Origin: Arthrobacter sp. DNA4
GTDB taxonomy: Bacteria; Actinomycetota; Actinomycetes; Actinomycetales; Micrococcaceae
Length of the DNA stretch: 64,000 bases
Reading direction: 5' to 3'
NCBI RefSeq assembly: GCF_024362385.1
Contig: NZ_CP101466.1
Coordinates: 2,170,001-2,234,000 of the forward strand
A model generated the notes under the pieces. That model did no database searches. It was given only the letters and a program-made list of their open reading frames with translations, and had not been told where the DNA came from. Of the stretch, positions 40,803 to 58,968 are shown in pieces. The translations under genes were made by a program, and so were the position numbers. How positions within the stretch are numbered: position 1 is the first letter of the stretch; each line of letters opens with the position of its first letter.

Positions 40803-41849
40803 TCAGTCCAGCAGCTCGAGGACGACCTTGACGTCGTCGGGTTGGTGGCCGAAAGCCTCACGGAAGCTTTCCAGCGGAAGCCTGCGGCTGATGAGGCGGC
40901 GCAGCCAGTCACGGTCCGCTTTCGCCAGGGCCTGCGCTCCGGCGTCGTAATGGCGGCGGTTGGCGTTGACGCTGCCGAACACCACGCCGTTCATGAGCAC
41001 CTCCTCCCGGTTGAGGGCCCCGACGTCCACTTTCGTCTGTTTCCCGGTTCCCGAGACGCCGGTGAGGCAGGTGATGGCATCCTGGTCCCGGCAGGTGAGG
41101 GCATCAAGAACCACCGGTGTGACTCCCGTGCATTCGACCAGGACGTCGGGCTTGAGGCCCGATTCCGGGAGGGGTTCGCGGTGGTAGGTGGCGCCCAAGT
41201 CGCGGACAAGCTGTGGCTTGGGGCCCTCGGTGACGACGTCGAAGACGTGGACGTCCAGGCCCTGTTGGACCCCCACCAGTGCCGCGAGCAGCCCGACGGG
41301 CCCCGCTCCGGTAACCACGGCGGTGTGGGGATCGAAAAAGGCCCGCTGCCCGATCCTGTTGATCTGTTCCCAGGCCTTGGCGACGATGGTGGTGGGCTCC
41401 AGGAGGACGCCCACGTCCTCCATCCCGGGATCGAGTTTCACCATTGCATCGGGGTCCGCGCGCCAATGCTGCCGCGCGAAACCGTCGAGGCCCTTGATCC
41501 CGTGCTCGGTGTATTTCCCGTTCAGGCACATGTCCCATTCCCCGGCGGCGCAGGCCTTGCACGGTTCCGGGTCAGGCCTGCGGACAATGCCCACCACCAG
41601 GTCTCCCTTTGCCAGGCCGGAATCCGGGGGAGCGTCGAGCACCCGGCCCAGGTTCTCGTGCCCCAGTACCAGGAAGTCCTGGCCGGGCGGCGCTTCCCCG
41701 TATTCCGCCGCGATGATCTCGCTGTCGGTTCCACAGAGTCCCACGGCCAGCGCCTCCACCAGCACCTGGCCCTCGCTGGTAAGCGGCTCCGGTATATCGC
41801 GGAGGTGGATTGAGTCCTTTTTTCCAGGTGTAACTGCCAGTGCACGCAT
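40803..41849 (-). CDS. Zinc-dependent glucose 1-dehydrogenase-like MDR
   Basis: Medium-chain dehydrogenase of 348 residues, probably oxidising glucose or a related aldose at C1 with NAD(P). Catalytic zinc ligands are in GLCGTDSEI near 38-46 and FLVLGHENLG near 60. A structural-zinc cluster CKACAAGEWDMC lies near 98-109. The Rossmann motif is TGAGPVGLLAAL. The EPTTIVAKAWEQI segment and overall form match the archaeal-type glucose dehydrogenase family. ATG 41849 follows GAGGAGAG. Forty-eight bases upstream is the TTGC-N6-GCAA palindrome shared with the marR region. Confidence 0.87.
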   Translation of the reverse strand: MRALAVTPGKKDSIHLRDIPEPLTSEGQVLVEALAVGLCGTDSEIIAAEYGEAPPGQDFLVLGHENLGRVLDAPPDSGLAKGDLVVGIVRRPDPEPCKACAAGEWDMCLNGKYTEHGIKGLDGFARQHWRADPDAMVKLDPGMEDVGVLLEPTTIVAKAWEQINRIGQRAFFDPHTAVVTGAGPVGLLAALVGVQQGLDVHVFDVVTEGPKPQLVRDLGATYHREPLPESGLKPDVLVECTGVTPVVLDALTCRDQDAITCLTGVSGTGKQTKVDVGALNREEVLMNGVVFGSVNANRRHYDAGAQALAKADRDWLRRLISRRLPLESFREAFGHQPDDVKVVLELLD

Positions 41850-42555: not shown

Positions 42556-45500
42556 ATGGCACCGCGAAGTTTTCTTCAATGGCCGGTCGTCCGTCAGCTA
42601 AGCACGGGCGACCTGTTGGGCCGTGGGCCGTCGGTGACGTCGGCCAAGACAAAAGCAATAGCCCCCCGGACCGCCACTGCCGACCGCGTCGTGCAGAGCG
42701 TGTGCCCTTACTGCGCCGTTGGATGTGGACAGCGTGTCTACGTCAAGGACGAGAAGGTCGTCCAGATCGAGGGAGATCCGGACTCGCCGATTTCGCGCGG
42801 CCGCCTGTGCCCCAAGGGCTCTGCGAGTGAACAGTTGGTCAACTCGCCCGGCCGGCAGACCAAAGTGCTTTACCGTGCGCCCCGTTCCACGGAGTGGCAG
42901 CGCCTGGACCTGGCGACGGCCGTCGAGATGGTGGCCGACCGGTTCATCGAGACGCGCCGCAGGACCTGGCAGCAGGAAGACGACCAAGGCCGGCTGTTGC
43001 GCCGCACCATGGGCATCGCCTCACTGGGCGGCGCAACCCTGGACAACGAAGAAAACTACCTGATCAAGAAGCTCTTCACAGCCGCAGGGGCGGTGCAGAC
43101 CGAGAACCAGGCCCGCATATGACACTCCGCCACGGTTCCCAGTTTGGGAGCCTCGTTTGGACGCGGTGGTGCTACGCAATCACTGCAGGACATGGCCAAC
43201 GCCGACTGCATCGTCATCCAGGGTTCCAACATGGCCGAGTGCCATCCCGTGGGGTACCAATGGGTGGCGGAGGCTAAGGCCCGCGGAGCGAAGGTCATCC
43301 ATATCGACCCCCGCTTCACGCGGACGTCGGCGGTCTCGGATAAGCACATCCCTATCCGTGCGGGTTCTGACGTCGTGCTGCTTGGTGCGCTCATCAACTA
43401 CGTGATCACCAACGATCTCTGGTTCAAGGAGTATGTCAGCGCCTACACGAACGCTGCCACGCTGGTCCATGCCGACTACCGCGACGCTGAGGACCTGGGC
43501 GGACTGTTCTCCGGCTTCGACCCGGAAAAGGGCGCCTACGACACATCCTCCTGGGCCTATGCCGAGAAGGGGGAGGGCGCCATCGACGAGCCGGGACCCG
43601 GTTCCGAACATGGCGCCGATGCCACGGCGCGCGCCGCCGGCCACGCCTTTGGCAGTGGCGGGCCACCCCTGGAGCACGCCGAAGTGCAGCGGGACGACAC
43701 GCTCGAGGATCCACGGACCGTTTTCCAGATCGTGAAGCGGCACTACGCCCGCTACACGGCGGAGATGGTGCAGGACATGTGCGGCATCAGCGTCGCCGAC
43801 TTCGAGTATTTGGCCCGTACCATCACGGAAAACTCGGGACGCGACCGGACCACCTGCTTCGCCTACGCGGTCGGCTGGACCCAGCACTCCCTGGGGGCGC
43901 AGTTCATCAGGGCCGCCGCCATCCTGCAGCTCCTGCTCGGAAACGTCGGACGCCCGGGCGGCGGCATCATGGCCTTGCGGGGCCACGCCAGCATCCAGGG
44001 TTCCACGGACATCCCCACCCTGTTCAACCTCCTGCCCGGGTACCTCCCAATGCCCAGCGCCGGACGCCATGACAGCCTCGAGGAATACCTGTCCGTTATT
44101 GGGTCGAAACAGCAGAAGGGCTTCTGGGCAGACGCCGATGCCTACACCATCAGCCTCCTGAAGGCCTGGTGGGGCGACGCTGCCACGGAAGACAACGACT
44201 GGGCCTACGACTACCTGCCCAGGCTGACCGGAGCTCACGGCACGTACGAGACAGTGATGGGCATGCTCGATGACGAAGTCGAGGGCTACTTTATCCTTGG
44301 CCAAAACCCGGCAGTGGGCTCCGCCCACGGCCGGATGCAGCGCCTCGCCATGTCCCATTTGAAGTGGCTTGTGGTGCGTGACCTGAACCTCATCGAGTCC
44401 GCCACCTGGTGGAAGGACGGCCCGGAGATCGAATCCGGCGAACTGCGCACTGAGGACATCGAAACCGAGGTGTTCTTCCTGCCCGCCGCGACCCACGTGG
44501 AGAAGGCCGGCTCCTTCACCCAGACCCAGCGGCTGCTGCAGTGGCGGCACCAGGCAGTGGCCCCGCCGGGGGAGTGCCAAAGCGAACTGCAGTTCTTCTA
44601 CGAGCTGGGCCAACGGATCCGCGAGAAGCTCGCCGATTCGGAGGACGAACGCGACCGGCCGCTGCTCGACCTGACGTGGGACTATCCCACCGACGAGCAC
44701 GGTGACCCGGACGCCGAAGCGGTGCTTGCCGAGATCAACGGCCGTCACGTGACCGGTCCGGACGCCGGAAAGCCCGTTTCCGCATACACGGAACTCCGCG
44801 CCGACGGTTCCACGGCGGCCGGCTGCTGGATCTACACCGGCGTGTACGCTGACGGTTTCAACCACGCCGCCAACCGCAAGCCGGGCCGGGAGCAGGGACC
44901 GGCGGCTCCGGAATGGGGCTGGGCATGGCCCGCCAACCGCCGGATCCTCTACAACCGCGCGTCCGCCGATCCCGCCGGCAAACCGTGGAGCGAGCGGAAG
45001 AAATACATCTGGTGGGACCAGGAGCAGGGTAAATGGGTCGGAGACGACATTCCGGACTTCCCGATCGACCGGGCACCGGGCAGCAAGCCCGATCCCTCCG
45101 TGGGTGGACCGGCCGCGCTCAGCGGAGACGATCCGTTCATCATGCAGGCCGACGGCAAGGGCTGGTTGTTCGCGCCGAAGGGCCTGTTGGACGGCCCCCT
45201 TCCCACCCACTACGAGGCCCAGGAATCACCGGTGGCCAACGCGCTGTACCCGCAACAGCAAAGTCCTGCGCGGCTGGTGTTCCCCCGTGCGGACAACCTC
45301 AGCGCGCCCAGCGCCGGCACCAGCGGGGCGGACGTTTACCCGTTTGTCTTCACCACGTACCGGCTCACGGAGCACCATACGGCGGGCGGGATGAGCCGCT
45401 GGCTCCCGTACCTGTCGGAGCTGCAGCCGGAGATGTTCTGCGAGGTGTCGCCTGAACTGGCAGCTGAGCGCGGACTGGAACCGTACGGGTGGGCCACCAT

Positions 45501-45888
45501 CATTTCGCCCCGCTCTGCCATCGAGGCGAAGGTGCTTGTGACGGACCGCATGAGGCCGCTGGCAGTTGGCGGCCACACCGTGCACCAGATCGGTCTGCCC
45601 TACCACTGGGGCGTGGGCAGCAACGCGGTGGTCAGCGGTGACGCGGCCAACGACCTGCTGGGTGTGACGCTGGACCCCAACGTCCAGATCCAGGAATCCA
45701 AGGTGGCCTCCTGCGACATCCGTCCGGGCCGCCGCCCGCGTGGCGAAGAACTCCTCGCCCTGGTTGCCGAGTACCAGACGAGGGCCGGTCTGACCCCCGA
45801 GACCGGTAACCAAGCGGTCACCGACCCCGCGGCGGAAGGCATTGATCCTCGGGGGAAAGATGGCGACGCCGATGGTGGGCCGGGATGA
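42556..45888 (+). CDS. Formate dehydrogenase alpha subunit, selenocysteine-containing
   Basis: Molybdenum/tungsten bis-MGD enzyme oxidising formate to CO2. Read through one TGA it has 1110 residues. The start is taken as ATG 42556, which keeps a conserved-looking leader (LQWPVVRQLS); GTG 42634 is an alternative. The N-terminal [4Fe-4S] cluster reads CPYCAVGCGQ and later CPKG. TGA at 43120-43122 (residue 189) stands in NQAR-I-Sec-HSATVPSLG, exactly where this family has Sec or Cys as the metal ligand. The frame continues intact with FGRGGATQSLQDM and then GSNMAECHPVG. A SECIS hairpin follows. FeS and NrfD subunits and sel genes lie downstream. Confidence 0.93.
43134..43152 (+). promoter_or_regulatory. 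SECIS element (apical hairpin)
   Basis: GGTTCCC (43134-43140), loop AGTTT (43141-43145) and GGGAGCC (43146-43152) give a seven-pair stem with one G-U pair. Eleven bases separate it from the TGA codon, the distance known for bacterial SECIS elements recognised by SelB, and the loop contains the GU expected at the tip. It is coding sequence at the same time. Confidence 0.82.
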
Positions 45889-45921
45889 TGAGCGTCATCG
45901 TCGGGCACATACATTGACCGG

Positions 45922-45953
45922 CCCGGAACGCTGTCTGCCGGCAGCGTTCCGGG
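45922..45953 (+). other. Intercistronic hairpin between fdhA and fdhB
   Basis: CCCGGAACGCTG (45922-45933) and CAGCGTTCCGGG (45942-45953) are perfect 12-base arms over TCTGCCGG. No T-run follows and the next gene starts 26 bases on, so it probably stabilises or processes the mRNA or tunes the subunit ratio. Confidence 0.6.
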
Positions 45954-45978
45954 TATCGACGCGACGTTGGAGAACTAG

Positions 45979-46989
45979 ATGGGCCAGCTGTCCGGACCGA
46001 CCGACCCCACCGCCGATGCCCATTGGGAGCACAACCATCCGCGCAAGGGGTTCTTTACCGACACCTCGATCTGTATCGGCTGCAAGGCCTGCGAGGTCGC
46101 CTGCAAGGAATGGAACCACAACCCGCAGGACGGCAACCTGGAACTGCTCGGATCCTCCTACGACAACACCGGATCCCTGGGCGCCAGCACCTGGCGGCAT
46201 GTTGCCTTCATCGAGCAAGGCCAGGACCGCATCGTCGAGGCACGGGAATCGGGCCGGGCCCTGGTCAGCCTCGGCATGCCCCGCATCGGTCCCCCCACCC
46301 CCGCAGCGTCCGCCCCGGCGGATCTGGCGGAGGCGGACACCACGCCGCCTGACACAGCAGACTTCCGCTGGCTGATGTCCTCTGACGTCTGCAAGCATTG
46401 CACCCACGCCGGGTGCCTTGACGTATGCCCCACGGGAGCGCTGTTCCGGACCGAGTTCGGCACCGTGGTGGTTCAGGACGACGTCTGCAACGGCTGCGGA
46501 ACGTGCGTGGCCGGGTGCCCCTTCGGCGTGATCGAGCGCCGCAGTAACGGCACAGTGAAGGTGGCCACCAGCAGGGAAGACCAGCACGCCGGGCATCCCG
46601 ACGTCCCCAACGTAGGCATCGCCCAGAAGTGCACCCTCTGCTACGACCGGCTGGTGGCCGACGAGACGCCCGCCTGCGCCAAGGCCTGCCCGACGACGTC
46701 CATCAAGTTCGGCGACCACGACGACATGGTGGAGGCAGCCCGGGAACGGGTTGCCGACCTGCACGCCAAAGGCCTCACCGAGGCAAGGCTTTACGGTGCG
46801 AACGAAAATGACGGCGTCGGCGGAACCGGCTCCGTCTTCCTGCTGCTCGATGAACCGGAGGTCTACGGACTTCCGCCGGACCCGCGCGTACCCACAGCTG
46901 ATCTGCCAACGATGTACCGGCGGGCCGGGATGGCGGTAGCAGGCATGGCCGCCGCCGCTGCGCTGGCCTTCCTGGGAGGACGCGCGTGA
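45979..46989 (+). CDS. Formate dehydrogenase beta subunit, 4Fe-4S ferredoxin type
   Basis: Electron-transfer subunit of 336 residues from ATG 45979 with TTGGAGAA upstream. Four cysteine clusters: CIGCKACEVAC near 32-42, CKHCTHAGCLDVC near 138-150, CNGCGTCVAGC near 169-179, and CTLCYDRLVADETPACAKAC near 218-237. A C-terminal hydrophobic segment (AGMAVAGMAAAAALAFLGG) near 315-333 anchors it in the membrane, as in FdnH/FdoH-type subunits. It ends in a GTGA overlap with the NrfD-like gene. It passes electrons from the selenoprotein to the membrane subunit. Confidence 0.92.
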   Translation: MGQLSGPTDPTADAHWEHNHPRKGFFTDTSICIGCKACEVACKEWNHNPQDGNLELLGSSYDNTGSLGASTWRHVAFIEQGQDRIVEARESGRALVSLGMPRIGPPTPAASAPADLAEADTTPPDTADFRWLMSSDVCKHCTHAGCLDVCPTGALFRTEFGTVVVQDDVCNGCGTCVAGCPFGVIERRSNGTVKVATSREDQHAGHPDVPNVGIAQKCTLCYDRLVADETPACAKACPTTSIKFGDHDDMVEAARERVADLHAKGLTEARLYGANENDGVGGTGSVFLLLDEPEVYGLPPDPRVPTADLPTMYRRAGMAVAGMAAAAALAFLGGRA

Positions 46990-48077
46990 CACTTTCCGAG
47001 TTCGATAGTTTCCGGCCAGCAGAGCCCGCACGCCGCCGTCGGGAGGGCGGCAAGCGGGGGACGGGCCGCCGCCGGGACAACGGTGACGGCTCCCGGGAAA
47101 TGCCGATGGTGCCCGAGCCGGAATTCACCTCGTACTACGGCCGTTCCGTAGTGAAACCTGCTCCCTGGGGCGACGACGTGGCGATCTACCTCTTCCTGGG
47201 TGGCGTGGCAGCCGGTTCGGCCCTCCTGGGCGCCGGCGGCCAACTGACCGGACGCCCGGCGCTGCGCAGGAACGCCCGGCTGGGCGCCCTGGCAGCGGTG
47301 AGCGCTGGTGCGGTTGCCTTGGTGAAGGACCTGGGCTTACCGGAGCGTTTCCTGCACATGCTGCGGACTTTCAAGGTCACCTCCCCGATGAGTGTGGGCT
47401 CGTGGATCCTCAGCGCATTCAGCGCCGGCGCCGGCGTCTCGGCCGTGGCGGAAATCGACCGGATGAGCGGCGACCGGCTGCCGCTGGGTCCGTTGCGCAA
47501 GGTGCTGCGCGCTGTGGAAGGACCGGCAGGCATCGAAGCTGCGGTGTTCGCCGGGCCGCTGGCGGCGTACACGGCCGTCCTGCTCGGTGACACAGCCACA
47601 CCGACGTGGAACGCGGCCCACGAGGAATTGCCTTTCGTTTTCGTGAGTTCGGCCTGCCTCGCGTCTGCCGGGCTCGCCATGGTCACCACGCCGGTGCGCG
47701 AGACGGGTCCTGCGCGGAAACTGGCCGTGCTCGGCGTCCTGGGAGATGTCGTGGCCATGAAGGTGATGGAGCACCGGATGGACCCGGTGGCCGCGGAACC
47801 ACTGCACCACGGCAAGGCCGGCGCCATGCTGAAGTGGAGCGAGCGGTTGGCCGTGGCCGGCGGCCTGGGCACACTGCTGGGCGGACGAAACCGGATGGTC
47901 GCCGCCGCTTCGGGGCTGGCACTGCTGACCGCCTCGGCCCTGACCCGGTTTGGTGTGTTCGAGGCAGGGCTCGCCTCTGCCAGGGACCCGCGGTACACCA
48001 TCGAACCGCAGAAGAACCGGCTCGCAGCCCGCCGCGCCGCCGGTGTTACCGGCGACGCAATCACCACCGGCAGCTGA
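46986..48077 (+). CDS. NrfD/PsrC-family membrane subunit of formate dehydrogenase
   Basis: Integral membrane protein of 363 residues from GTG 46986. A basic, disordered N-terminus (about 1-55) precedes SYYGRSVVKPAPWGDDVAIY, which is typical of NrfD proteins, and eight or so membrane segments follow (LFLGGVAAGSALLGAGGQL, WILSAFSAGAGVSAVAEI, AGIEAAVFAGPLAAYTAVLL and others). Such subunits hand electrons to menaquinone without haem, taking the place of the cytochrome b subunit of Fdn/Fdo. The overlap with the beta subunit gene shows a single operon. Confidence 0.88.
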   Translation: MTLSEFDSFRPAEPARRRREGGKRGTGRRRDNGDGSREMPMVPEPEFTSYYGRSVVKPAPWGDDVAIYLFLGGVAAGSALLGAGGQLTGRPALRRNARLGALAAVSAGAVALVKDLGLPERFLHMLRTFKVTSPMSVGSWILSAFSAGAGVSAVAEIDRMSGDRLPLGPLRKVLRAVEGPAGIEAAVFAGPLAAYTAVLLGDTATPTWNAAHEELPFVFVSSACLASAGLAMVTTPVRETGPARKLAVLGVLGDVVAMKVMEHRMDPVAAEPLHHGKAGAMLKWSERLAVAGGLGTLLGGRNRMVAAASGLALLTASALTRFGVFEAGLASARDPRYTIEPQKNRLAARRAAGVTGDAITTGS

Positions 48078-48092
48078 GGCAGCTGCCGGGTT

Positions 48093-49118
48093 TCAGCGGA
48101 TCTGAATACCCTGCCCCGCAGTGGTATGGCCGATTACGGGGTGGCCCGGCAGCTCGCCCACCACCAGCAGGCCGCCGGACGTCTGCGCATCGGCCAGCAG
48201 CAGCAGATCATCCTCGGTGATGCCCGGTGCGGCCTCCAGGTGCGGACGTACCCAGTCGAGGTTGCGCCGGGTCCCGCCCGAGACGAAGCCGTCCTGGAGT
48301 GCCTCGCGGGCTCCATCGATCAGCGGTACGGCTTTCAGGTCGATGACGGCGCCCACTTCCGAGGCGCGGACCATCTTGTAAAGGTGCCCCAGCAGGCCAA
48401 AACCGGTTACGTCAGTGGCTGCACGAACGCCGGCGGCCACCGCCGCCTCGGAGGCGTCGCGGTTCAGTGCCGCCATCGTCTCCACGGCTTCGGCAAACAC
48501 CTCACCGGTCTGCTTGTGCCGGTTATTGAGGAGACCGACGCCGAGTGGCTTGGTCAGAGTGATGGGCAAACCCGGCCGGGCGGCGTCGTTGCGCAGCAAG
48601 CGGTCGGGATGGGCGACGCCGGTGACGGCCATGCCGTACTTGGGCTCCGGATCATCAATGGAGTGCCCGCCGAGCACGGGGCACCCCGCCTGGGACGCCA
48701 CGCTCAGGCCACCGCGCAGGACCTCGGTCATCAATTCCATCGGCAGGACGCCGCGGGGCCAGCCGACGAGGTTGATCGCCGTGACGGGCTTACCGCCCAT
48801 GGCGTAGATGTCCGACAGGGCATTGGCGGCGGCAATGCGGCCCCAGTCATATGCATCGTTGACAACGGGGGTGAAAAAGTCGGCGGTGGTCAGGACCGCA
48901 AGATCATCGCGCACCAGGACCGCCGCAGCGTCGTCGCCGCTGTCAAGGCCCACAAGGACCTCCGCGCCGGGTTGGCCGATGAGGCCACGGACCGCATCTT
49001 CGAGTTCGCCGGGAGGAATTTTGCACGCGCAGCCGCCGCCGTGGGCATAGTCGGTGAGCCGGAATGCGCCGGTGGCACCATGATCGAGTTGCTGGACTGA
49101 CATCTGAGCCTCATTCAC
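48093..49118 (-). CDS. selD: Selenide, water dikinase
   Basis: Makes selenophosphate, the selenium donor for Sec-tRNA, from selenide and ATP. It has 341 residues. The glycine-rich N-terminal loop GGGCACKIPPGEL places C30 and K33 at the catalytic positions (Cys17 and Lys20 in E. coli). Other marks are GLDSGDDAAAV, LTTADFFTPVVNDAYDWGRI, then AANALSDIYAMGGKP, and ATDVTGFGLLGHL. The active site uses Cys, not Sec. It is on the strand opposite to selC, selA and selB, with its start 45 bases from the tRNA. Confidence 0.96.
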   Translation of the reverse strand: MNEAQMSVQQLDHGATGAFRLTDYAHGGGCACKIPPGELEDAVRGLIGQPGAEVLVGLDSGDDAAAVLVRDDLAVLTTADFFTPVVNDAYDWGRIAAANALSDIYAMGGKPVTAINLVGWPRGVLPMELMTEVLRGGLSVASQAGCPVLGGHSIDDPEPKYGMAVTGVAHPDRLLRNDAARPGLPITLTKPLGVGLLNNRHKQTGEVFAEAVETMAALNRDASEAAVAAGVRAATDVTGFGLLGHLYKMVRASEVGAVIDLKAVPLIDGAREALQDGFVSGGTRRNLDWVRPHLEAAPGITEDDLLLLADAQTSGGLLVVGELPGHPVIGHTTAGQGIQIR

Positions 49119-49162
49119 CCGCCCAGCGTACCCTCCAAGGCAACCCTGCTATATTGAGGCGC

Positions 49163-49257
49163 GGTGGCGTCCGGGTCCTGGTGGGCCCCCCGGTCTTCAA
49201 AACCGGTGAGGCTGAGCATCTCGGCCTGGCGGGTTCGATTCCCGTCCGCCACCGCCA
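49163..49257 (+). tRNA. selC: tRNA-Sec (anticodon TCA)
   Basis: A 95-base tRNA including encoded CCA (49255-49257). Acceptor arms are GGTGGCG at the 5' end and CGCCACC at 49247-49253, with G54 as discriminator. The anticodon arm is CCGGT-CTTCAAA-ACCGG with TCA at 49197-49199, reading UGA. A long variable arm (GAGGCTGAGCATCTCGGCCT) and a T-arm GCGGG-TTCGATT-CCCGT follow. The long D-arm and variable arm and the opal anticodon identify it as the selenocysteine tRNA. It lies between selD and selA. Confidence 0.95.
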
Positions 49258-49293
49258 ACTTTCGGCAGCGAATGCCGCGATATGAGGAGGGCT

Positions 49294-50625
49294 GTGGACC
49301 ACGTCGATCCCCGGCGCCTGATTCCCCGCACAAATGACCTGCTGGCCTTGCCTGCCGTCCGCGAAGCCCGCACCCGGCTGAACGAGCGCGTCATCCGCGA
49401 ACTTGTCCGGGACGTCCAGGAGCAGGCCCGGCGCGGCGGGCTGCCCCCCGGCCAGGTGGAACCGGCCCTGCTGGCGGCCGTCGCTGCGCGTGCGGCAACC
49501 ACCCTGCGCCCGGTGCTGAACGCCACCGGCGTCATCGTCCACACAAACCTTGGGCGCGCCCCTCTTTCTGAAGGTGCAGTGGAAGCTCTCGTCGCGGCCA
49601 GCGGCTACGTCGATGTGGAGCTGGACCTGTCAGACGGCAGCCGCTCCCGCCGGGGCGCCGGTGCCCGGGCGGCACTGCTGGCCGCCTGTCCCGCCGCCGA
49701 GGACGCACTGGTGGTCAACAACGGAGCCGCGGCGCTGGTGCTGGCCACGACAGCCTTCGCCGCTGGCCGGGAAGTGGTGGTGAGCCGCGGCGAACTCGTT
49801 GAAATTGGTGCCGGATTCAGGCTGACGGACCTGATGGAATCCACCGGTGCCAGGCTTCGCGAGGTGGGCACCACCAACCGAACGCACCTGCACGACTACG
49901 CCGGAGCCCTCGGTCCTGACACCGGATGCGTCCTAAAGGTCCATCCAAGCAACTTCCGGGTTGACGGTTTTACCTCAGCTGTTCCCATCAATGAGCTGAG
50001 CCGCCTGGCCTCGGCCAACGGCGTCCCCCTCGTGGCCGACCTGGGCAGCGGACTGCTGGCCCCCGACCCGTTCCTGCCGGATGAACCGGATGCCGCCTCC
50101 GCCCTGGCGAGCGGCGCCGACGTCGTCATCGCCAGCGGGGACAAACTCCTGGGCGGCCCCCAGGCGGGGTTGCTGCTGGGCCGCAAGGAGGTCATCGCCC
50201 GGCTGGCCCGCCACCCGCTCGCCCGCGCCGTCAGGGCAGACAAACTTGTCCTCGCCGCCCTGGAAGCAACGGTTGCGGGCGGGCCGCCGCCCGTCGTGCA
50301 GGCGCTGCACACCGACGTCGGGCAGTTACGCGGCCGTACGGACCGGCTTGCCCGGGAACTGGGCGTACCCGTGGTCCCGCATGACGGCAGGGTAGGGGGT
50401 GGCGGCGCCCCCGGCGTACCCCTGCCCGGGTGGGCACTCCGGCTCCCCGAAGGACTTGCGCGTCCCCTGCGGACCGGCGACCCGGCCGTGCTGCCGCGCG
50501 TCCACGACGGCTCCTGCCTGGTCGATCTGCGCTGCGTGCCCGAAAAGGACGATGACCGGATTGTCGAGGCGGTACGGCGTGCCCTGGCAACCCTTGATGT
50601 TGCGGATGCAGGGAGGGCGGGCTGA
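49294..50625 (+). CDS. selA: L-seryl-tRNA(Sec) selenium transferase
   Basis: PLP enzyme converting Ser-tRNA(Sec) to Sec-tRNA(Sec). It has 443 residues from GTG 49294, which lies just behind GAGGAGGG; the ATG at 49282 is inside that box and less likely. Features: RRLIPRTNDLLALPAVREA at the N-terminus, ATGVIVHTNLGRAPLSE, VVNNGAAALVLATTA, and the PLP lysine K284 in SGDKLLGGPQAG. Length is normal. selB follows with a three-base gap. Confidence 0.95.
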   Translation: MDHVDPRRLIPRTNDLLALPAVREARTRLNERVIRELVRDVQEQARRGGLPPGQVEPALLAAVAARAATTLRPVLNATGVIVHTNLGRAPLSEGAVEALVAASGYVDVELDLSDGSRSRRGAGARAALLAACPAAEDALVVNNGAAALVLATTAFAAGREVVVSRGELVEIGAGFRLTDLMESTGARLREVGTTNRTHLHDYAGALGPDTGCVLKVHPSNFRVDGFTSAVPINELSRLASANGVPLVADLGSGLLAPDPFLPDEPDAASALASGADVVIASGDKLLGGPQAGLLLGRKEVIARLARHPLARAVRADKLVLAALEATVAGGPPPVVQALHTDVGQLRGRTDRLARELGVPVVPHDGRVGGGGAPGVPLPGWALRLPEGLARPLRTGDPAVLPRVHDGSCLVDLRCVPEKDDDRIVEAVRRALATLDVADAGRAG

Positions 50626-50628
50626 ACC

Positions 50629-52423
50629 GTGCACGTCATTGCCACAGCCGGGCACGTCGATTCCGGTAAAAGCACACTGGTCCGCGCCCTCACCGGCATG
50701 GAGCCCGACCGCTGGGAGGAAGAACGGCGCCGCGGGCTGACCATTGACCTGGGGTATGCCTGGACCACGCTGCCGTCCGGACAGGACGTGGCGTTCGTCG
50801 ATGTACCGGGCCACGAACGTTTCCTGGGCAACATGCTCGCCGGCATCGGACCTGCGCCGGTGGTCTGCTTCGTGGTGGCCGCCGACGAAGGCTGGCAGGC
50901 GCAGTCGAGCGACCACCGGGACGCCGTCGCTGCACTGGGCATTGAACACGGCGTCGTGGTGCTGAGCCGCGCGGACCGGGCATCCGGGCAGCGGGTTGCG
51001 GAGGTGCTCGCGCGGACCCGAACGGAACTGGCCGGGACCGGCCTGCAGGACGCGCCCGCAGTAGCTGTATCCGCCATCGACGGCACGGGCCTGGCTGACC
51101 TGCGTGCAGCGCTCGACGGCGTACTGGCCAACGTGCCTCATCCCACCACGGATGGGCGGGTCCGGTTGTGGGTGGACCGTTCGTTCACCATCACCGGTTC
51201 CGGGACGGTGGTGACCGGGACACTGGCAGCAGGAACGCTCGCCCAGGGTGACCGGCTGGAACTGATCGGCCACGTCGATTCCCGGCCGGTGGTGGTCCGT
51301 GGCCTGCAAAGCCGGGACACCTCGTACGCCTCGGTGGAACCGGTCAGCCGGGTGGCGCTGAACCTGCGCGACGTTGCCGCAACGGATATCCGCCGCGGTG
51401 ACGCGCTGGTTACCCCGGACGCATGGCCCACCACAGCAGTGGTGGGAATCCAGCGCACCACCGGGGTGGCCTACACCGAGGTCCCGGAACAGCTCATGGT
51501 GCACGTTGGCACGGCGTCCGTGCCGGCCCGGCTGCGCCCCTTCGGCGCCGACCATGCCCGGCTGGTCCTCGACAGGCACCTGCCCCTCGTCCTGGGGGAC
51601 CGCCTGGTGCTGCGCGATCCCGGAAGCCGTTCGGTGCTGGGCGGCGCGCGTATCCTCGATGCCGACCCACCGGCCTTGCGGCGGCGCGGTGACGGCGCCC
51701 ACTGGGCGGAGCGTCTTGCAGGAATGGACCCCGCCGGAGACGTACTGTCAGAGGTTGCAGCCCGCAGGGCTGTGCAGGCGGAACACCTGCGCCGGCTAGG
51801 ACTGCTGCCCGGGCATGACGCGGAGGCACCCGCCGGCGTACAGGTCATCGAGGACTGGTGGGTGCACGCTCCCGTCCTTGAGGCCTGGCAGCATCAGCTG
51901 CGCACCGCGGTCCAGGCGCTGCAGGAGCGGGACGCCCTGGCCCCAGGCCTTTCCATGGGTGCGGCGCGGGACCTGCTCACGTTGCCCGACGAGAAGCTGC
52001 TTTCCCACGTCATCCGCGGTGCCGGCCTGGAACAGGACGGCGGACACGTCCGGCTGCCTGGCAGCCAGGGCAACCTTGGTCCCATCGAGCGGCAATCGCC
52101 ACACTGGAGGGCAGGCTCAGCGCGGATGCCTTCCGTGCCCCCGAAGCCGATGAGCTGGCGGCACTCGGCCTCGGTGCCCGCGAGCTCGCAGCCGCTGAAC
52201 GCACCGGGCGCCTGCTGCGCCTGCGCGACGGGGTGGTGCTGCTGCCCACCGCCCCGGCGCTTGCCATGCGCACCCTCGCCACTTGGACCAGCCCTTCACC
52301 ACGAGCCAGGCCCGCCAGGCGCTGGGCACAACACGCCGGATCGCGGTTCCGCTGCTGGAGCACCTGGATTCGCGCGGCTGGACCAAGAGGCTGGATGCAG
52401 GACACCGCACGGTGGTGCGCTGA
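50629..52423 (+). pseudogene. selB: Selenocysteine-specific elongation factor SelB, two frameshifts near the C-terminus
   Basis: GTPase carrying Sec-tRNA(Sec) to the ribosome at SECIS-marked UGA codons. The start is GTG 50629. The P-loop GHVDSGKST is at 8-16, RRRGLTIDLGY and DVPGHERF follow, then EF-Tu-like domains 2 and 3 (VDRSFTITGSGTVVTGTL). After PIE at 52089 the family sequence continues one frame over (AIATLEGRLSADAFRAPEAD) and shifts again at about 52282 (LDQPFTTSQARQALGTTRR), ending at TGA 52421-52423. Each shift is repaired by one base (GAG-GCG and ACC-TTG). If real, the SECIS-binding winged helices are lost; sequencing error is equally plausible. Confidence 0.87.
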
Positions 52424-52986: not shown

Positions 52987-53781
52987 ATGGTACCGATGAG
53001 GGAGAGCCCGGAATGGTTTGATTGGTCAGTGCTCCGTGTAAAACGCTTTGTGGCCCTTAGCCTGTTCGTGGTCTGCGCGAGCGCAGTTTTCTCGTTCTGG
53101 CTGCTGGGCCAGCCCGGCGCCGGAGCCCGTACGGCCGTTTTCCTGCCCCCGCGTGCGGGAGCCAAGCTTCAGCCGGGGCCCGATGGCATCGCCACCGCCG
53201 TGAACGTCACGCGAAGCCCGGACGCCGAGTGGCTTGGCACGGCTGCCGCCCACACCGGAATCCCTGCACCGGCGCTGCGTGCCTATGTCAATGCGGCCCT
53301 TGCCGCCAATGAATCCGCTCCGAAGTGTGGCATCGGCTGGAACACGCTCGCCGCCGTCGGCTTCGTCGAATCAGCCCACGGCACGTACGGTGGCGGCAGC
53401 TTGAGCCCCGCCGGCCAGGCCAGCGGCCCGATCGTGGGCCCCAGCCTCAACGGCGCGGGATTCGCCGCCATAGCCGACACCGACGGCGGCGCCCTGGACG
53501 GCGACGCGAGTTGGGACCACGCGGTGGGACCGATGCAGTTCATTCCCTCCACATGGCGGATCGCAGGCAGGGACGGGAATGGAGACGGGGCGGCGGACCC
53601 GTTCAACATCGATGACGCCGCCCTCAGTGCGGCCACGTATCTTTGCGGCCACGGGCGCGACCTCACCACAGCGCAGGGCTGGACAGCTGCCATTTACGCC
53701 TACAACCAGTCCGACGCCTACATCCGCCAGGTGAGCTCCCAGGCCACCTCCTACGCCGCGAAAACGGGCACCGCCGGTTGA
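52987..53781 (+). CDS. Secreted lytic transglycosylase-like protein
   Basis: Cell-wall-active protein of about 264 residues. The start is uncertain: ATG 52987, ATG 52996 or a GTG near 53035 just before the signal segment (FVALSLFVVCASAVFSFWLL). After export, the lysozyme-like domain spans about 80-255 with WNTLAAVGFVESAHGTYGG carrying the catalytic glutamate, GPMQFIPSTWRIAGRDGNGD, then AADPFNIDDAALSAATYLC, and AIYAYNQSDAYIRQV. This is the MltB-like form common in actinobacteria. It would cut peptidoglycan glycan strands. Confidence 0.87.
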   Translation: MVPMRESPEWFDWSVLRVKRFVALSLFVVCASAVFSFWLLGQPGAGARTAVFLPPRAGAKLQPGPDGIATAVNVTRSPDAEWLGTAAAHTGIPAPALRAYVNAALAANESAPKCGIGWNTLAAVGFVESAHGTYGGGSLSPAGQASGPIVGPSLNGAGFAAIADTDGGALDGDASWDHAVGPMQFIPSTWRIAGRDGNGDGAADPFNIDDAALSAATYLCGHGRDLTTAQGWTAAIYAYNQSDAYIRQVSSQATSYAAKTGTAG

Positions 53782-56214: not shown

Positions 56215-56791
56215 ATGAAAGCCCCTGAAGATACATCCGGTCAGTCGCCCGCCATCTCCCCGCGTGGACCCGTGTTTGTCGACGCGTCAGGCCGCCGGCT
56301 CCGGCGGGTCAAGATGATCGGCCTCGGGGTCGTCGGGCTTGTAGCGGCATACGTCATCCTCGTACTGGCCGCCTTCATCGGCGGGTCAGGATCCTCGGCA
56401 CCATTCCTTCCCCTGCCGGCCGCCGCCGGACCCCGCGATACGCCAACAAGTCCGCCCTCTGCCGATCCTCGGGCCGCCTGACCGGGCCCGCCGTTCCGGT
56501 TGTTGAGCAGTCGCCGCGGCCGTCCCGGTGCCCGTCTCTGCTGTTACTGCCGTACCTCCGGCGGAGGGCGCCGCCGTCGTGCCCGCTGCGCCCGCCGCCC
56601 CCGCCGCTGCTCCTGCCCCGGCTCCGGCCGCCGCCCCCGCAGCCCCCGGAACGTCGGGAACCGCCACCGGCTCCGGTGCAACCGCCCCCGGCTCCAGCGG
56701 AACAGCGCCGGGCTCCAGCACGACCGCCCCCGGCGCGAGCGGCTCGGCGCCGGGCCAGGCCACACGGCCCACCGCCCCCGCGCACCAGTAA
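56215..56791 (+). pseudogene. Membrane protein with Ala/Pro/Thr-rich tail, frame disrupted
   Basis: The intact first part (56215-56481, 88 residues) has a membrane segment MIGLGVVGLVAAYVILVLAAF after VFVDASGRRLRRVK, then stops at GCC-TGA. Beyond it a low-complexity Ala/Pro/Thr/Gly stretch (APGSSGTAPGSSTTAPGASG) runs to TAA 56789-56791 in another frame. It can be joined by restoring one base near 56480 and another near 56510. In relatives such proteins precede the deacetylase/glycosyltransferase gene. It is probably a single-span protein with an extracellular stalk. Confidence 0.55.
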
Positions 56792-56792
56792 C

Positions 56793-58968
56793 ATGACCCG
56801 CCGGAATAAAGGTTCCCGACCCGCCGCAAGCAACGTCCCCGCTACTGTCAGGGCGCATTGGTTTGTCCTTCTCGCCACCCTGATGGCCCTGGGGCTCGCC
56901 CTGGCCGTGCAGGGATACATCCATCATCTGGGCGGAGCGCCCGGGGACTCTTTGCCGGCGGACACAGCCGCAGGCGCCGTCCCCACAACGCTCTCGCACG
57001 GCGGCCCCGTGGTGGATTCGCGCGGCGGCTCCGTGACAACCGTCAGCCCGCCGGACCGGACCATCGCCCTGACCTTCGACGACGGCCCGGACCCGGTTTG
57101 GACGCCCCGCATCCTGGACGTACTCCGGGAACACCACGTCCATGCCACCTTCTTCGTCGTTGGTTCCGCGGCGGTGGACCACCCGGACCTGGTGCGCCGC
57201 ATGGTGGCGGAAGGCCACGAAGTGGGTGTCCACACGCTGACCCACACCGACCTTGGCACAGCCCCGGACTGGCGCCGCGAACTGGAGGTGCAGGGCGGAC
57301 AGGATGCGATTGTCGGAGTGACGGGCCAAGCGGCTTCCCTGCTGCGCCCGCCTTACACCGCCGGCAACAGCGCCATTACGAACGGCATGTGGTCCGCGCT
57401 CCATGGAATGGCGGACGAGGGCTACCTCACCGTGCTCAGCAGCCTGGACAGCGAGGACTGGCAGACCCCGGGCACCAAAGCCATCGAAGCCAACCTGACC
57501 CCGTCGGGGCCGCAGGGGCAGGTGGTCCTGATGCACGACGGCGGCGGAGACAGGGAACAGACCGTCGCCGCGCTGGACTCCGCCCTGTCGCGCTTCTCCG
57601 CACAGGGGTACAAGGTCACAACGGTCGGGGAAGCCGTGGGCGTGGACAGCATGCGCCCCGCTTCCAGCGTTGAACAGCTGCGCGGCTCTGCCCTGGTCTG
57701 GGGGATCCGCCTCAGCGATTTCGTCGTCTGGGCGATCTCCTTGGGGCTCGTCGCCGCCGGCGTCGTGACTTTCCTCCGTGCCGTCCTGGTGATGTTCTTC
57801 GCAGCACGCCACAGCCGTGCTGCACGCCGCCTCCCCGGTTCGGGACGTGGTAAGCGCCGCGTCGACGTGATGGTGGGGCCCGTGGTGACTGAAGCGGCGA
57901 CCGTGATTGTCCCGGCCTATAACGAATCCGCGGGAATTGAAGCCGCCGTCCTGTCGATCCTTGCCTCCACGCACCCGGTCGAGGTCATCGTTGTGGACGA
58001 CGGGTCCACCGACGGGACGGCGGACATCGTGGAGGCCCTCGACCTGCCTGGCGTCACCGTCATCCGCAAGGAGAACGGCGGCAAACCGTCCGCGCTGAAC
58101 GCAGGGATCCAGGCCGCCAGCCACGACCTTGTGGTCATGGTGGACGGCGACACGGTCTTCGAGCCTGATACGGTACGTGCCCTCATCCAGCCGTTTACCG
58201 ATCCCCGGGTGGGAGCGATTTCCGGCAACACCAAGGTGGCCAACCGGGGCGGCATCCTCGGCGCATGGCAGCACATCGAGTACGTCGTAGGGTTCAACCT
58301 TGACCGCAGGCTGTTCGACGTCGCCGAATGCATGCCCACCGTCCCCGGGGCCATTGGTGCCTTCCGGATTGAGGCCCTCCGCAATGTCGGGGGCGTCAGC
58401 GACGACACACTCGCCGAGGACACCGACCTGACCATGGCACTGTGCCGGGACGGCTGGCGGGTGGTGTACCAGGAGGACGCACGGGCCTGGACGGAGGCAC
58501 CCGCCACCCTTGGCGCCCTGTGGCGACAGCGGTACCGCTGGTGCTACGGCACCCTCCAGGCAATGTGGAAGCACCGGGGTGCCGTGGTTCAGGGAGGTGC
58601 GGTAGCAAGCTTGGCGGCGTGGACTGGGCTACCTGCTGGTACTGCAGGTGCTGCTTCCCCTCTTCGCGCCCATCGTCGACGTCTTTGCCCTCTACGGCCT
58701 GATCTTCCTGGACCCGCTGCGGATCGGGGCTCTGTGGCTGCTCTTCCTGGCGGTCCAGTTGCTCATGGCCGCCTACGCGTTCCGGCTCGACAAGGAACGG
58801 CTGGGACCGCTCTGGACACTCCCGCTGCAGCAGTTCGTCTACCGGCAGCTCATGTACCTGGTGGTCATCCAGGCCGTTGTCACGGCAGTTGCCGGAGTCC
58901 ACCTTCGCTGGCACCGGATGGAGAGGTACGGCAGCCTGCGCGTCCCGCAGACCCAAAGCCAGGGCTAG
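56793..58968 (+). pseudogene. Polysaccharide deacetylase fused to family 2 glycosyltransferase, frameshifted
   Basis: A bifunctional exopolysaccharide enzyme of about 725 residues. After an N-terminal membrane span comes a NodB-type deacetylase (LTFDDGPDPVWTPRIL, VHTLTHTDL, RPPYTAGNSA, LMHDGGGDREQT). A second membrane segment and the GT2 domain follow (VIVPAYNESAG, VVDDGSTDGT, MVDGDTVFEPD, AEDTDLTMAL, QRYRWCYG). At 58590-58612 two single-base losses shift the frame; the C-terminal membrane spans continue as LLPLFAPIVDVFALYGLIFL to TAG at 58966. The makeup fits synthesis and partial N-deacetylation of a poly-N-acetylglucosamine-like polymer. Confidence 0.82.

What the first reader, a model, noticed from the sequence alone, without database searches (positions are those of the whole stretch)
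42556..52423. Complete selenocysteine locus with Sec-formate dehydrogenase in an actinobacterium
In 10 kb the window has a formate dehydrogenase whose TGA (43120-43122) lies at the metal-ligand position, a SECIS hairpin 11 bases downstream, FeS and NrfD subunits, selD, selC, selA and selB. The known parts fit together: a UGA-reading tRNA, its charging enzymes, the elongation factor and a client gene. The NrfD-type membrane subunit in place of a cytochrome b suggests electron flow from formate to menaquinone. Families and pathway are established; the combined layout is seen directly.
Basis: partly seen in the sequence, partly recalled or inferred. Interest (0 to 1): 0.72.

Follow-up and report, generated by a model that had tools for sequence, protein, structure and literature searches.

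The report
Ordinary actinobacterial selenocysteine formate-dehydrogenase locus
An actinobacterium carries the genes for a selenium-containing formate-oxidising enzyme next to the genes that insert selenium into it; this arrangement is already known in its relatives, and the one odd point, an apparently broken selB gene, is most likely an error of the sequence assembly.

Summary
The locus is real and correctly read, with one correction. The alpha-subunit frame 42556-45888 has an in-frame TGA at 43120-43122, aligned with the Sec of E. coli FdnG and TGA in 109 of 109 related loci read. The hairpin after it is the most constrained stretch of the gene at third codon positions (rank 1 of 363 windows). 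FeS, NrfD-type, selD, tRNA-Sec and selA genes are present. selB is not one open frame here: its pieces lie in three frames, while 16 of 16 relatives and a near-identical protein, P0001, are intact. This assembly misreads GCCGGC: GCTTAC/GTAAGC at 33 of 511 sites where the nearest relative found has GCCGGC, 0 of 381 in reverse, 0 in four other comparisons. The selB breaks are most likely assembly errors. The kind is known: NCBIfam NF041513, a like cluster in Corynebacterium aurimucosum (PMC2830990), selenite-dependent formate removal in Actinomycetospora (PMC7176365), Sec use in Arthrobacter (PMC5029168); passages seen. Of 295 family genomes 71 have FDH, tRNA-Sec and SelB; none has tRNA-Sec or SelB without FDH at the thresholds used. 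Ordinary; low interest.

The parts
42556..45888 (+). Formate dehydrogenase alpha subunit, 1110 residues with Sec at 189
   Evidence: NCBIfam NF041513 formate_DH_Act 1962.9 bits against a cut-off of 1400; TIGR01553 925.9 against 814.2
43120..43122 (+). TGA codon for selenocysteine
   Evidence: TGA in 109 of 109 related loci read; aligned with the X (Sec) of E. coli FdnG 1kqf
43134..43152 (+). SECIS hairpin: stem 43134-43141 with 43145-43152, loop GUU 43142-43144. The U at 43136 faces a G at 43150; the fold draws them as a U-G pair, I left them unpaired in the pair count
   Evidence: fold; 99.0% of 483 cells paired over 69 distinct rows, one pair with a double change; lowest third-position entropy of 363 windows
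45979..46989 (+). Iron-sulfur (beta) subunit with one C-terminal hydrophobic segment (residues 316-334)
   Evidence: Pfam Fer4 families; hydropathy
46986..48077 (+). NrfD-type membrane (gamma) subunit
   Evidence: PF03916 65.3 bits against 25.8; seven hydrophobic segments by hydropathy
48093..49118 (-). selD, selenophosphate synthetase
   Evidence: TIGR00476 387.6 bits against a cut-off of 125
49163..49257 (+). selC, tRNA-Sec, anticodon TCA
   Evidence: ARAGORN; Rfam RF01852 78.3 bits against 47
49282..50625 (+). selA, selenocysteine synthase
   Evidence: TIGR00474 412.9 bits against 267.9
50629..52089 (+). selB, first piece (GTPase, domain 2 and SelB beta-barrel)
   Evidence: TIGR00475 264.1 bits against 242.25; PF25461
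52092..52283 (+). selB, second piece, different frame from the first
   Evidence: tblastn to 16 of 16 relatives, where it is in frame with the rest; no Pfam match of its own
52289..52423 (+). selB, third piece (winged helix), third frame, to the stop
   Evidence: PF09107 57.3 bits; in frame in 16 of 16 relatives

Best explanation
A standard actinobacterial selenocysteine cassette. SelD makes selenophosphate; SelA converts seryl-tRNA-Sec to selenocysteyl-tRNA-Sec; SelB brings it to the ribosome when it meets the hairpin just after the UGA of the formate dehydrogenase mRNA, so residue 189 becomes selenocysteine, a ligand of the metal of the molybdopterin cofactor (roles recalled from the named families). 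Electrons from formate pass through the FeS subunit to the NrfD-type membrane subunit and probably to menaquinone. In the living strain selB is probably intact; the two frame breaks in the window are most likely errors of this assembly, which misreads the motif GCCGGC. Shown by sequence: gene content, UGA position, SECIS constraint, co-occurrence, systematic error. Inferred: insertion of Sec in this strain, intact selB, electron acceptor, cytoplasmic side of the catalytic subunit.
For: Families. TGA in 109 of 109 loci (the highest-scoring loci, partly the same genomes twice, 69 distinct sequences). SECIS constraint rank 1 of 363 windows; 99.0% of cells paired. Cys paralogues (4 of 4 read, L055-L058) have TGC and lack the conserved hairpin sequence. 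FDH, tRNA-Sec and SelB together in 71 of 295 family genomes, none with tRNA-Sec or SelB but no FDH. selB in one frame in 16 of 16 relatives. P0001, 598 residues, shares residues 2-487 without a difference, 63 of the 64 residues of the second piece and 44 of 44 of the third. Motif error: 33 of 511 against 0 of 381, 474, 401, 485 and 473. FdhD elsewhere in the genome. Published selenite-dependent formate removal with a like cluster (PMC7176365, passages).
Against: No protein, selenium or read data. Only one of the two selB breaks (codon 487) falls on a GCCGGC of the nearest relative G323; at the second, G323 lacks the motif, though G177 and G282 have it within five codons. Of 21 break places in the census 5 lie near a GCCGGC of the query gene, 2.1 expected; three of the five are selB itself, one is zwf and one is a wide interval with a background of 0.72, so this motif does not explain most of the other breaks. 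SECIS covariation is thin: one pair with a double change, in 2 cells; 58 of 500 shuffles reach that number of pairs, 47 of 500 the covariation score, and a structure slid by one column has one such pair with 25 cells. Three draft genomes with the FDH lack tRNA-Sec, SelB or both in the scan: G021, G148, G167. P0001 has no named source, so its strain is unknown.
Confidence: 0.9

Rival explanations
1. The selB breaks are real: this strain has lately lost Sec decoding, so translation stops at the UGA and the formate dehydrogenase is not made; the rest of the locus is a fresh relic.
For: Two breaks within about 200 bases of one gene; the only gene listed with three pieces in the census. The part out of frame includes the winged helix PF09107, recalled to bind SECIS. 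The motif explains few of the other breaks.
Against: The assembly shows many breaks: 12 of 368 genes against G177 and 8 of 142 against G282, with 1 of 377, 2 of 149, 2 of 160 and 1 of 164 in the other directions, including zwf, 99% identical on both sides of its break. Systematic misreading at GCCGGC. P0001 is identical in nearly all of the three pieces and unbroken.
Confidence: 0.07
2. The TGA is a plain stop and the two halves are separate or dead genes.
For: A TTG at 43144 starts a 914-residue open frame after the TGA.
Against: One continuous homology of 1110 residues across the TGA, TGA kept in 109 of 109 loci, silent positions frozen over the hairpin, machinery present with it in 71 of 74 genomes with a non-paralogue FDH, the three others being drafts (the five paralogue-only genomes set aside, three of them by identity alone).
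Confidence: 0.01
3. SelB works as a split or frameshifted protein in this strain, through recoding.
For: The downstream pieces are conserved at the amino-acid level.
Against: 16 of 16 relatives read have one frame; the assembly has systematic errors.
Confidence: 0.01

Closest known systems
Actinobacterial formate dehydrogenase NF041513 (formate_DH_Act) with a sel cluster, as in Corynebacterium aurimucosum (PMC2830990, passages seen)
   Same: FDH alpha gene with internal UGA, FeS gene and sel genes with selC clustered
   Different: Sequence, orientation and gamma gene of the published cluster not compared; selB here is out of frame as assembled
FDH1 cluster of Actinomycetospora chiangmaiensis (PMC7176365, passages seen)
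   Same: Alpha 1078, beta 362, gamma 366 residues, SelA 459, SelB 597 residues in its table; formate removal depends on selenite
   Different: In its table SelD is not assigned to that cluster and a permease is; sequences not compared here
E. coli formate dehydrogenase N (1kqf)
   Same: Alpha subunit aligned in two long stretches, Sec at the same place
   Different: No Tat-like hydrophobic core and an NrfD-type gene where E. coli has a cytochrome b gamma gene; the E. coli features are recalled
Sec trait in Arthrobacter reported in PMC5029168 (passages seen)
   Same: Sec use in two Arthrobacter strains, listed there as recipients of gene transfer
   Different: Other strains; the present scan finds tRNA-Sec and SelB in 14 of 32 genera sampled of the family

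Membership tests
Actinobacterial Sec formate dehydrogenase (NF041513) | Score above the curated cut-off over the whole protein | tested here: met
   1962.9 bits against 1400, residues 6-1075
Actinobacterial Sec formate dehydrogenase (NF041513) | In-frame UGA at the metal-ligand position (position recalled from FdnG) | tested here: met
   TGA in 109 of 109 loci; aligned with the Sec of 1kqf
Actinobacterial Sec formate dehydrogenase (NF041513) | SECIS hairpin under selection | tested here: met
   third-position constraint; energy modest; covariation thin
Actinobacterial Sec formate dehydrogenase (NF041513) | Selenium in the protein | not testable with these tools
   needs 75Se or mass spectrometry
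Bacterial Sec-decoding trait | selA, selC, selD present | tested here: met
Bacterial Sec-decoding trait | selB as one intact gene | tested here: not met
   three frames in the window as assembled; attributed to assembly error
Formate dehydrogenase N (E. coli type) | Alpha subunit above TIGR01553 cut-off | tested here: met
   925.9 against 814.2
Formate dehydrogenase N (E. coli type) | Beta subunit above TIGR01582 cut-off | tested here: not met
   164.2 against 334.7
Formate dehydrogenase N (E. coli type) | Cytochrome b gamma subunit in the operon | tested here: not met
   the third gene is PF03916 NrfD; the rest of the genome was not searched for a cytochrome b subunit
Formate dehydrogenase N (E. 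coli type) | Tat signal on the alpha subunit | tested here: not met
   no hydrophobic segment in the first 80 residues of the window protein; by my hydropathy criterion 0 of 109 loci have one, while 20 of 109 have a twin arginine (16 of 109 by the stricter pattern)

The most novel reading that the evidence does not exclude
The enzyme is a formate:menaquinone oxidoreductase whose catalytic subunit faces the cytoplasm (no working Tat signal, only a twin-arginine remnant in some relatives) and whose haem-free NrfD-type subunit, not a cytochrome b redox loop, couples formate oxidation to the membrane. This would be a different energy-coupling layout from E. coli FDH-N, carried by a cassette of Sec genes that is gained or lost as a unit.
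Probability: 0.3. Interest if true: 0.35.

Novelty: already known. Interest (0 to 1): 0.15.

Why it matters
It adds one more actinobacterium to those that appear to use selenocysteine for formate oxidation and shows that the cassette is patchy within the genus (15 of 41 genomes sampled have SelB). Practically, the apparent loss of selB would be misread as gene decay; the motif-specific error found here warns against calling pseudogenes in this assembly.

Tried and rejected
Rejected: real loss of selB (see rivals). Rejected: orphan TGA-containing FDHs in Sec-less genomes. G104, G150, G162, G207 and G235 have an FDH hit but no tRNA-Sec or SelB. G104 and G162, read directly, have TGC at the Sec position; the TGA reported for G162 is not at that position (no internal stop in the 1092 residues translated) and is probably the terminal stop. 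G150, G207 and G235 were not read; they sit at the same 63-64% identity and are taken as Cys type by inference. Superseded: a first census of frame breaks, 6 of 128 against 1 of 137, replaced by the larger one; both use a codon-position heuristic, not a gene caller, and some breaks near a gene start may be start-codon effects. Weak test: motif proximity of breaks against distant relatives, 5 of 21 against 2.1 expected, three of the five being selB; the direct comparison with the nearest relative was used instead. Weak test: SECIS covariation, because the element hardly varies. Led nowhere: solved structure of the NrfD subunit, 0 hits at E <= 0.01 by sequence; GCCGGC with nanopore, 15 papers, 10 titles and abstract starts seen, none read; a five-term version, 0 papers; selenocysteine with Micrococcaceae, 1 paper, listing only, about tick bacteria; selenoprotein, formate dehydrogenase, Mycobacterium and NrfD, 0 papers; formate dehydrogenase, selenocysteine and NrfD, 1 paper, listing only. 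Listings (5 papers; 14 papers) gave the three papers whose passages I saw. Not done: scan of the whole genome for further selenoproteins; tree of the cassette; empty sites; structure prediction.
Full report
What is there. The window lies in a single-contig genome of 4.56 Mb at 2170001-2234000. The finding's parts are present: FDH alpha with in-frame TGA, FeS and NrfD subunits, selD and selA, tRNA-Sec with anticodon TCA, selB in pieces.

The selenocysteine codon. In 109 of 109 loci read the codon at this place is TGA. These are 29 of the 30 loci that cut out (its own-genome locus left out) and the 80, the highest-scoring matches of each; they overlap in genomes and give 69 distinct 57-base sequences. 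The alignment with E. coli FdnG (1kqf) puts the residue on the Sec of that structure.

The SECIS. The stem starts 11 bases after the TGA; the minimum energy over 43117-43170 is -20.7 kcal/mol with z -1.81, and 6 of 200 shuffles fold as well, so energy alone is weak. Conservation is strong: over 109 loci the mean third-position entropy of codons 193-199 is 0.14 bits, against 1.22 for the 608 four- and six-fold columns (each column computed on the sequences with its majority residue), and this window ranks first of 363. Pairing holds in 99.0% of 483 cells, which 1 of 500 shuffles reaches; but only one pair shows a change on both sides, in two cells, 58 of 500 shuffles reach that number of pairs and 47 of 500 the covariation score, and the structure slid by one column shows one such pair with 25 cells. 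Four Cys paralogues do not keep the sequence. The likeness of loop and U to the E. coli fdhF element is recalled, not tested.

selB. The pieces 50629-52089, 52092-52283 and 52289-52423 are in three frames. In 16 of 16 relatives' loci with the Sec cassette the three pieces are in one frame (20 loci were fetched, the other four being Cys paralogues). A public protein, P0001 (598 residues, source not named, from a contig of 4,647,576 bases), shares residues 2-487 with the first piece without a difference, 63 of 64 residues of the second and 44 of 44 of the third, and is one chain.

Why I hold the breaks to be assembly errors. A census of frame-broken genes gave 12 of 368 for G177 genes on the window's genome and 8 of 142 for G282 genes on it, against 1 of 377 (window genome on G177), 2 of 149 (window genome on G282), 2 of 160 (G177 on G282) and 1 of 164 (G282 on G177) (800 kb each of the window's genome and G177, 400 kb of G282). 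One break is in zwf (glucose-6-phosphate dehydrogenase), 99% identical on both sides. In 230 kb aligned with G323, the nearest relative found, GCCGGC occurs 511 times in G323, while the reverse comparison (226 kb) finds 381 in the window's genome. At those 511 sites the window's genome reads GCTTAC or GTAAGC 33 times; the reverse count is 0 of 381, and four other pairs give 0 of 474, 401, 485 and 473. Indels sit at 14 of 511 such sites (9 of 1023 at control palindromes) against 1 of 381 in reverse (8 of 930). CTTACC is the most enriched of the 6-mers tested and GGCCGGCC the most depleted palindrome tested. One fixed three-base change at one motif is not how genes usually evolve; it looks like a base-calling fault, perhaps at a methylated motif (inference). 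The first selB break, at codon 487, falls on a GCCGGC of G323 and G282, not G177; at the second, G177 and G282 have the motif within five codons and G323 does not. Against this, 5 of 21 break places in the census lie near the motif with 2.1 expected, and three of the five are selB, so most other breaks are not explained by it.

Distribution. Of 295 family genomes, 79 have an FDH hit (E <= 1e-30), 71 tRNA-Sec (E <= 1e-9), 72 SelB (E <= 1e-40). All three are in 71; none has tRNA-Sec or SelB without FDH. The eight others with FDH are G104, G150, G162, G207, G235 (only the 63-64% paralogue) and the drafts G021, G148 (SelB but no tRNA-Sec) and G167. Within the genus 15 of 41 genomes have SelB, so the cassette is patchy. 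The gene after selB in the window (52987-53781) has relatives in 26 of 41 genomes of the genus and lies close to selB in some, for example G323; the gene before the FDH (40803-41849) has close relatives in 9 of 41. Both counts include the window's own genome. Empty sites were not examined.

How it works. By the roles of these families (recalled), SelD, SelA, tRNA-Sec and SelB insert Sec at the UGA; the Sec enzyme oxidises formate and passes electrons by the FeS subunit to the NrfD-type subunit. By my hydropathy criterion no alpha subunit in 109 loci has a hydrophobic core before its first FeS motif; 20 of 109 have a twin arginine there. I infer a cytoplasmic catalytic side and menaquinone as acceptor; neither is shown. 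FdhD, the sulfurtransferase such enzymes need (recalled), is encoded elsewhere in the genome.

Comparison with print. PMC2830990 (passages) describes such a cluster in Corynebacterium aurimucosum and calls the gene order highly conserved. PMC7176365 (passages) reports that formate accumulates in Actinomycetospora without selenite and hardly with it, and a cluster with alpha, beta, gamma, SelA and SelB of like lengths. PMC5029168 (passages) lists Sec trait transfers into two Arthrobacter strains. The locus is therefore ordinary.

Noticed in passing
whole genome; tested in about 230 kb aligned with G323: Systematic misreading of GCCGGC as GCTTAC/GTAAGC in this assembly (33 of 511 sites against 0 of 381 in reverse); cause not tested, a methylated motif is suspected.
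   Followed up: partly
window 56673-58965: Polysaccharide deacetylase/glycosyltransferase gene that appears to change frame near 58613 relative to G177 and G282; no GCCGGC lies near that place in either. Possibly another assembly fault.
   Followed up: partly
G000:C1:2304413-2305961: zwf (glucose-6-phosphate dehydrogenase) broken in frame in the assembly although 99% identical to relatives on both sides.
   Followed up: partly
L055-L058: Cys-type FDH paralogue with its own FeS and NrfD genes (47-55% identical to the window's) in genus g7 (includes Sinomonas), in some genomes together with the Sec enzyme and in others alone: a natural Sec/Cys pair.
   Followed up: partly
N-termini of FDH alpha, for example L025 and L026: Some relatives start with MARRSFLQWPVV, a twin-arginine-like motif without a hydrophobic core, perhaps a chaperone-binding remnant (guess).
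   Followed up: no
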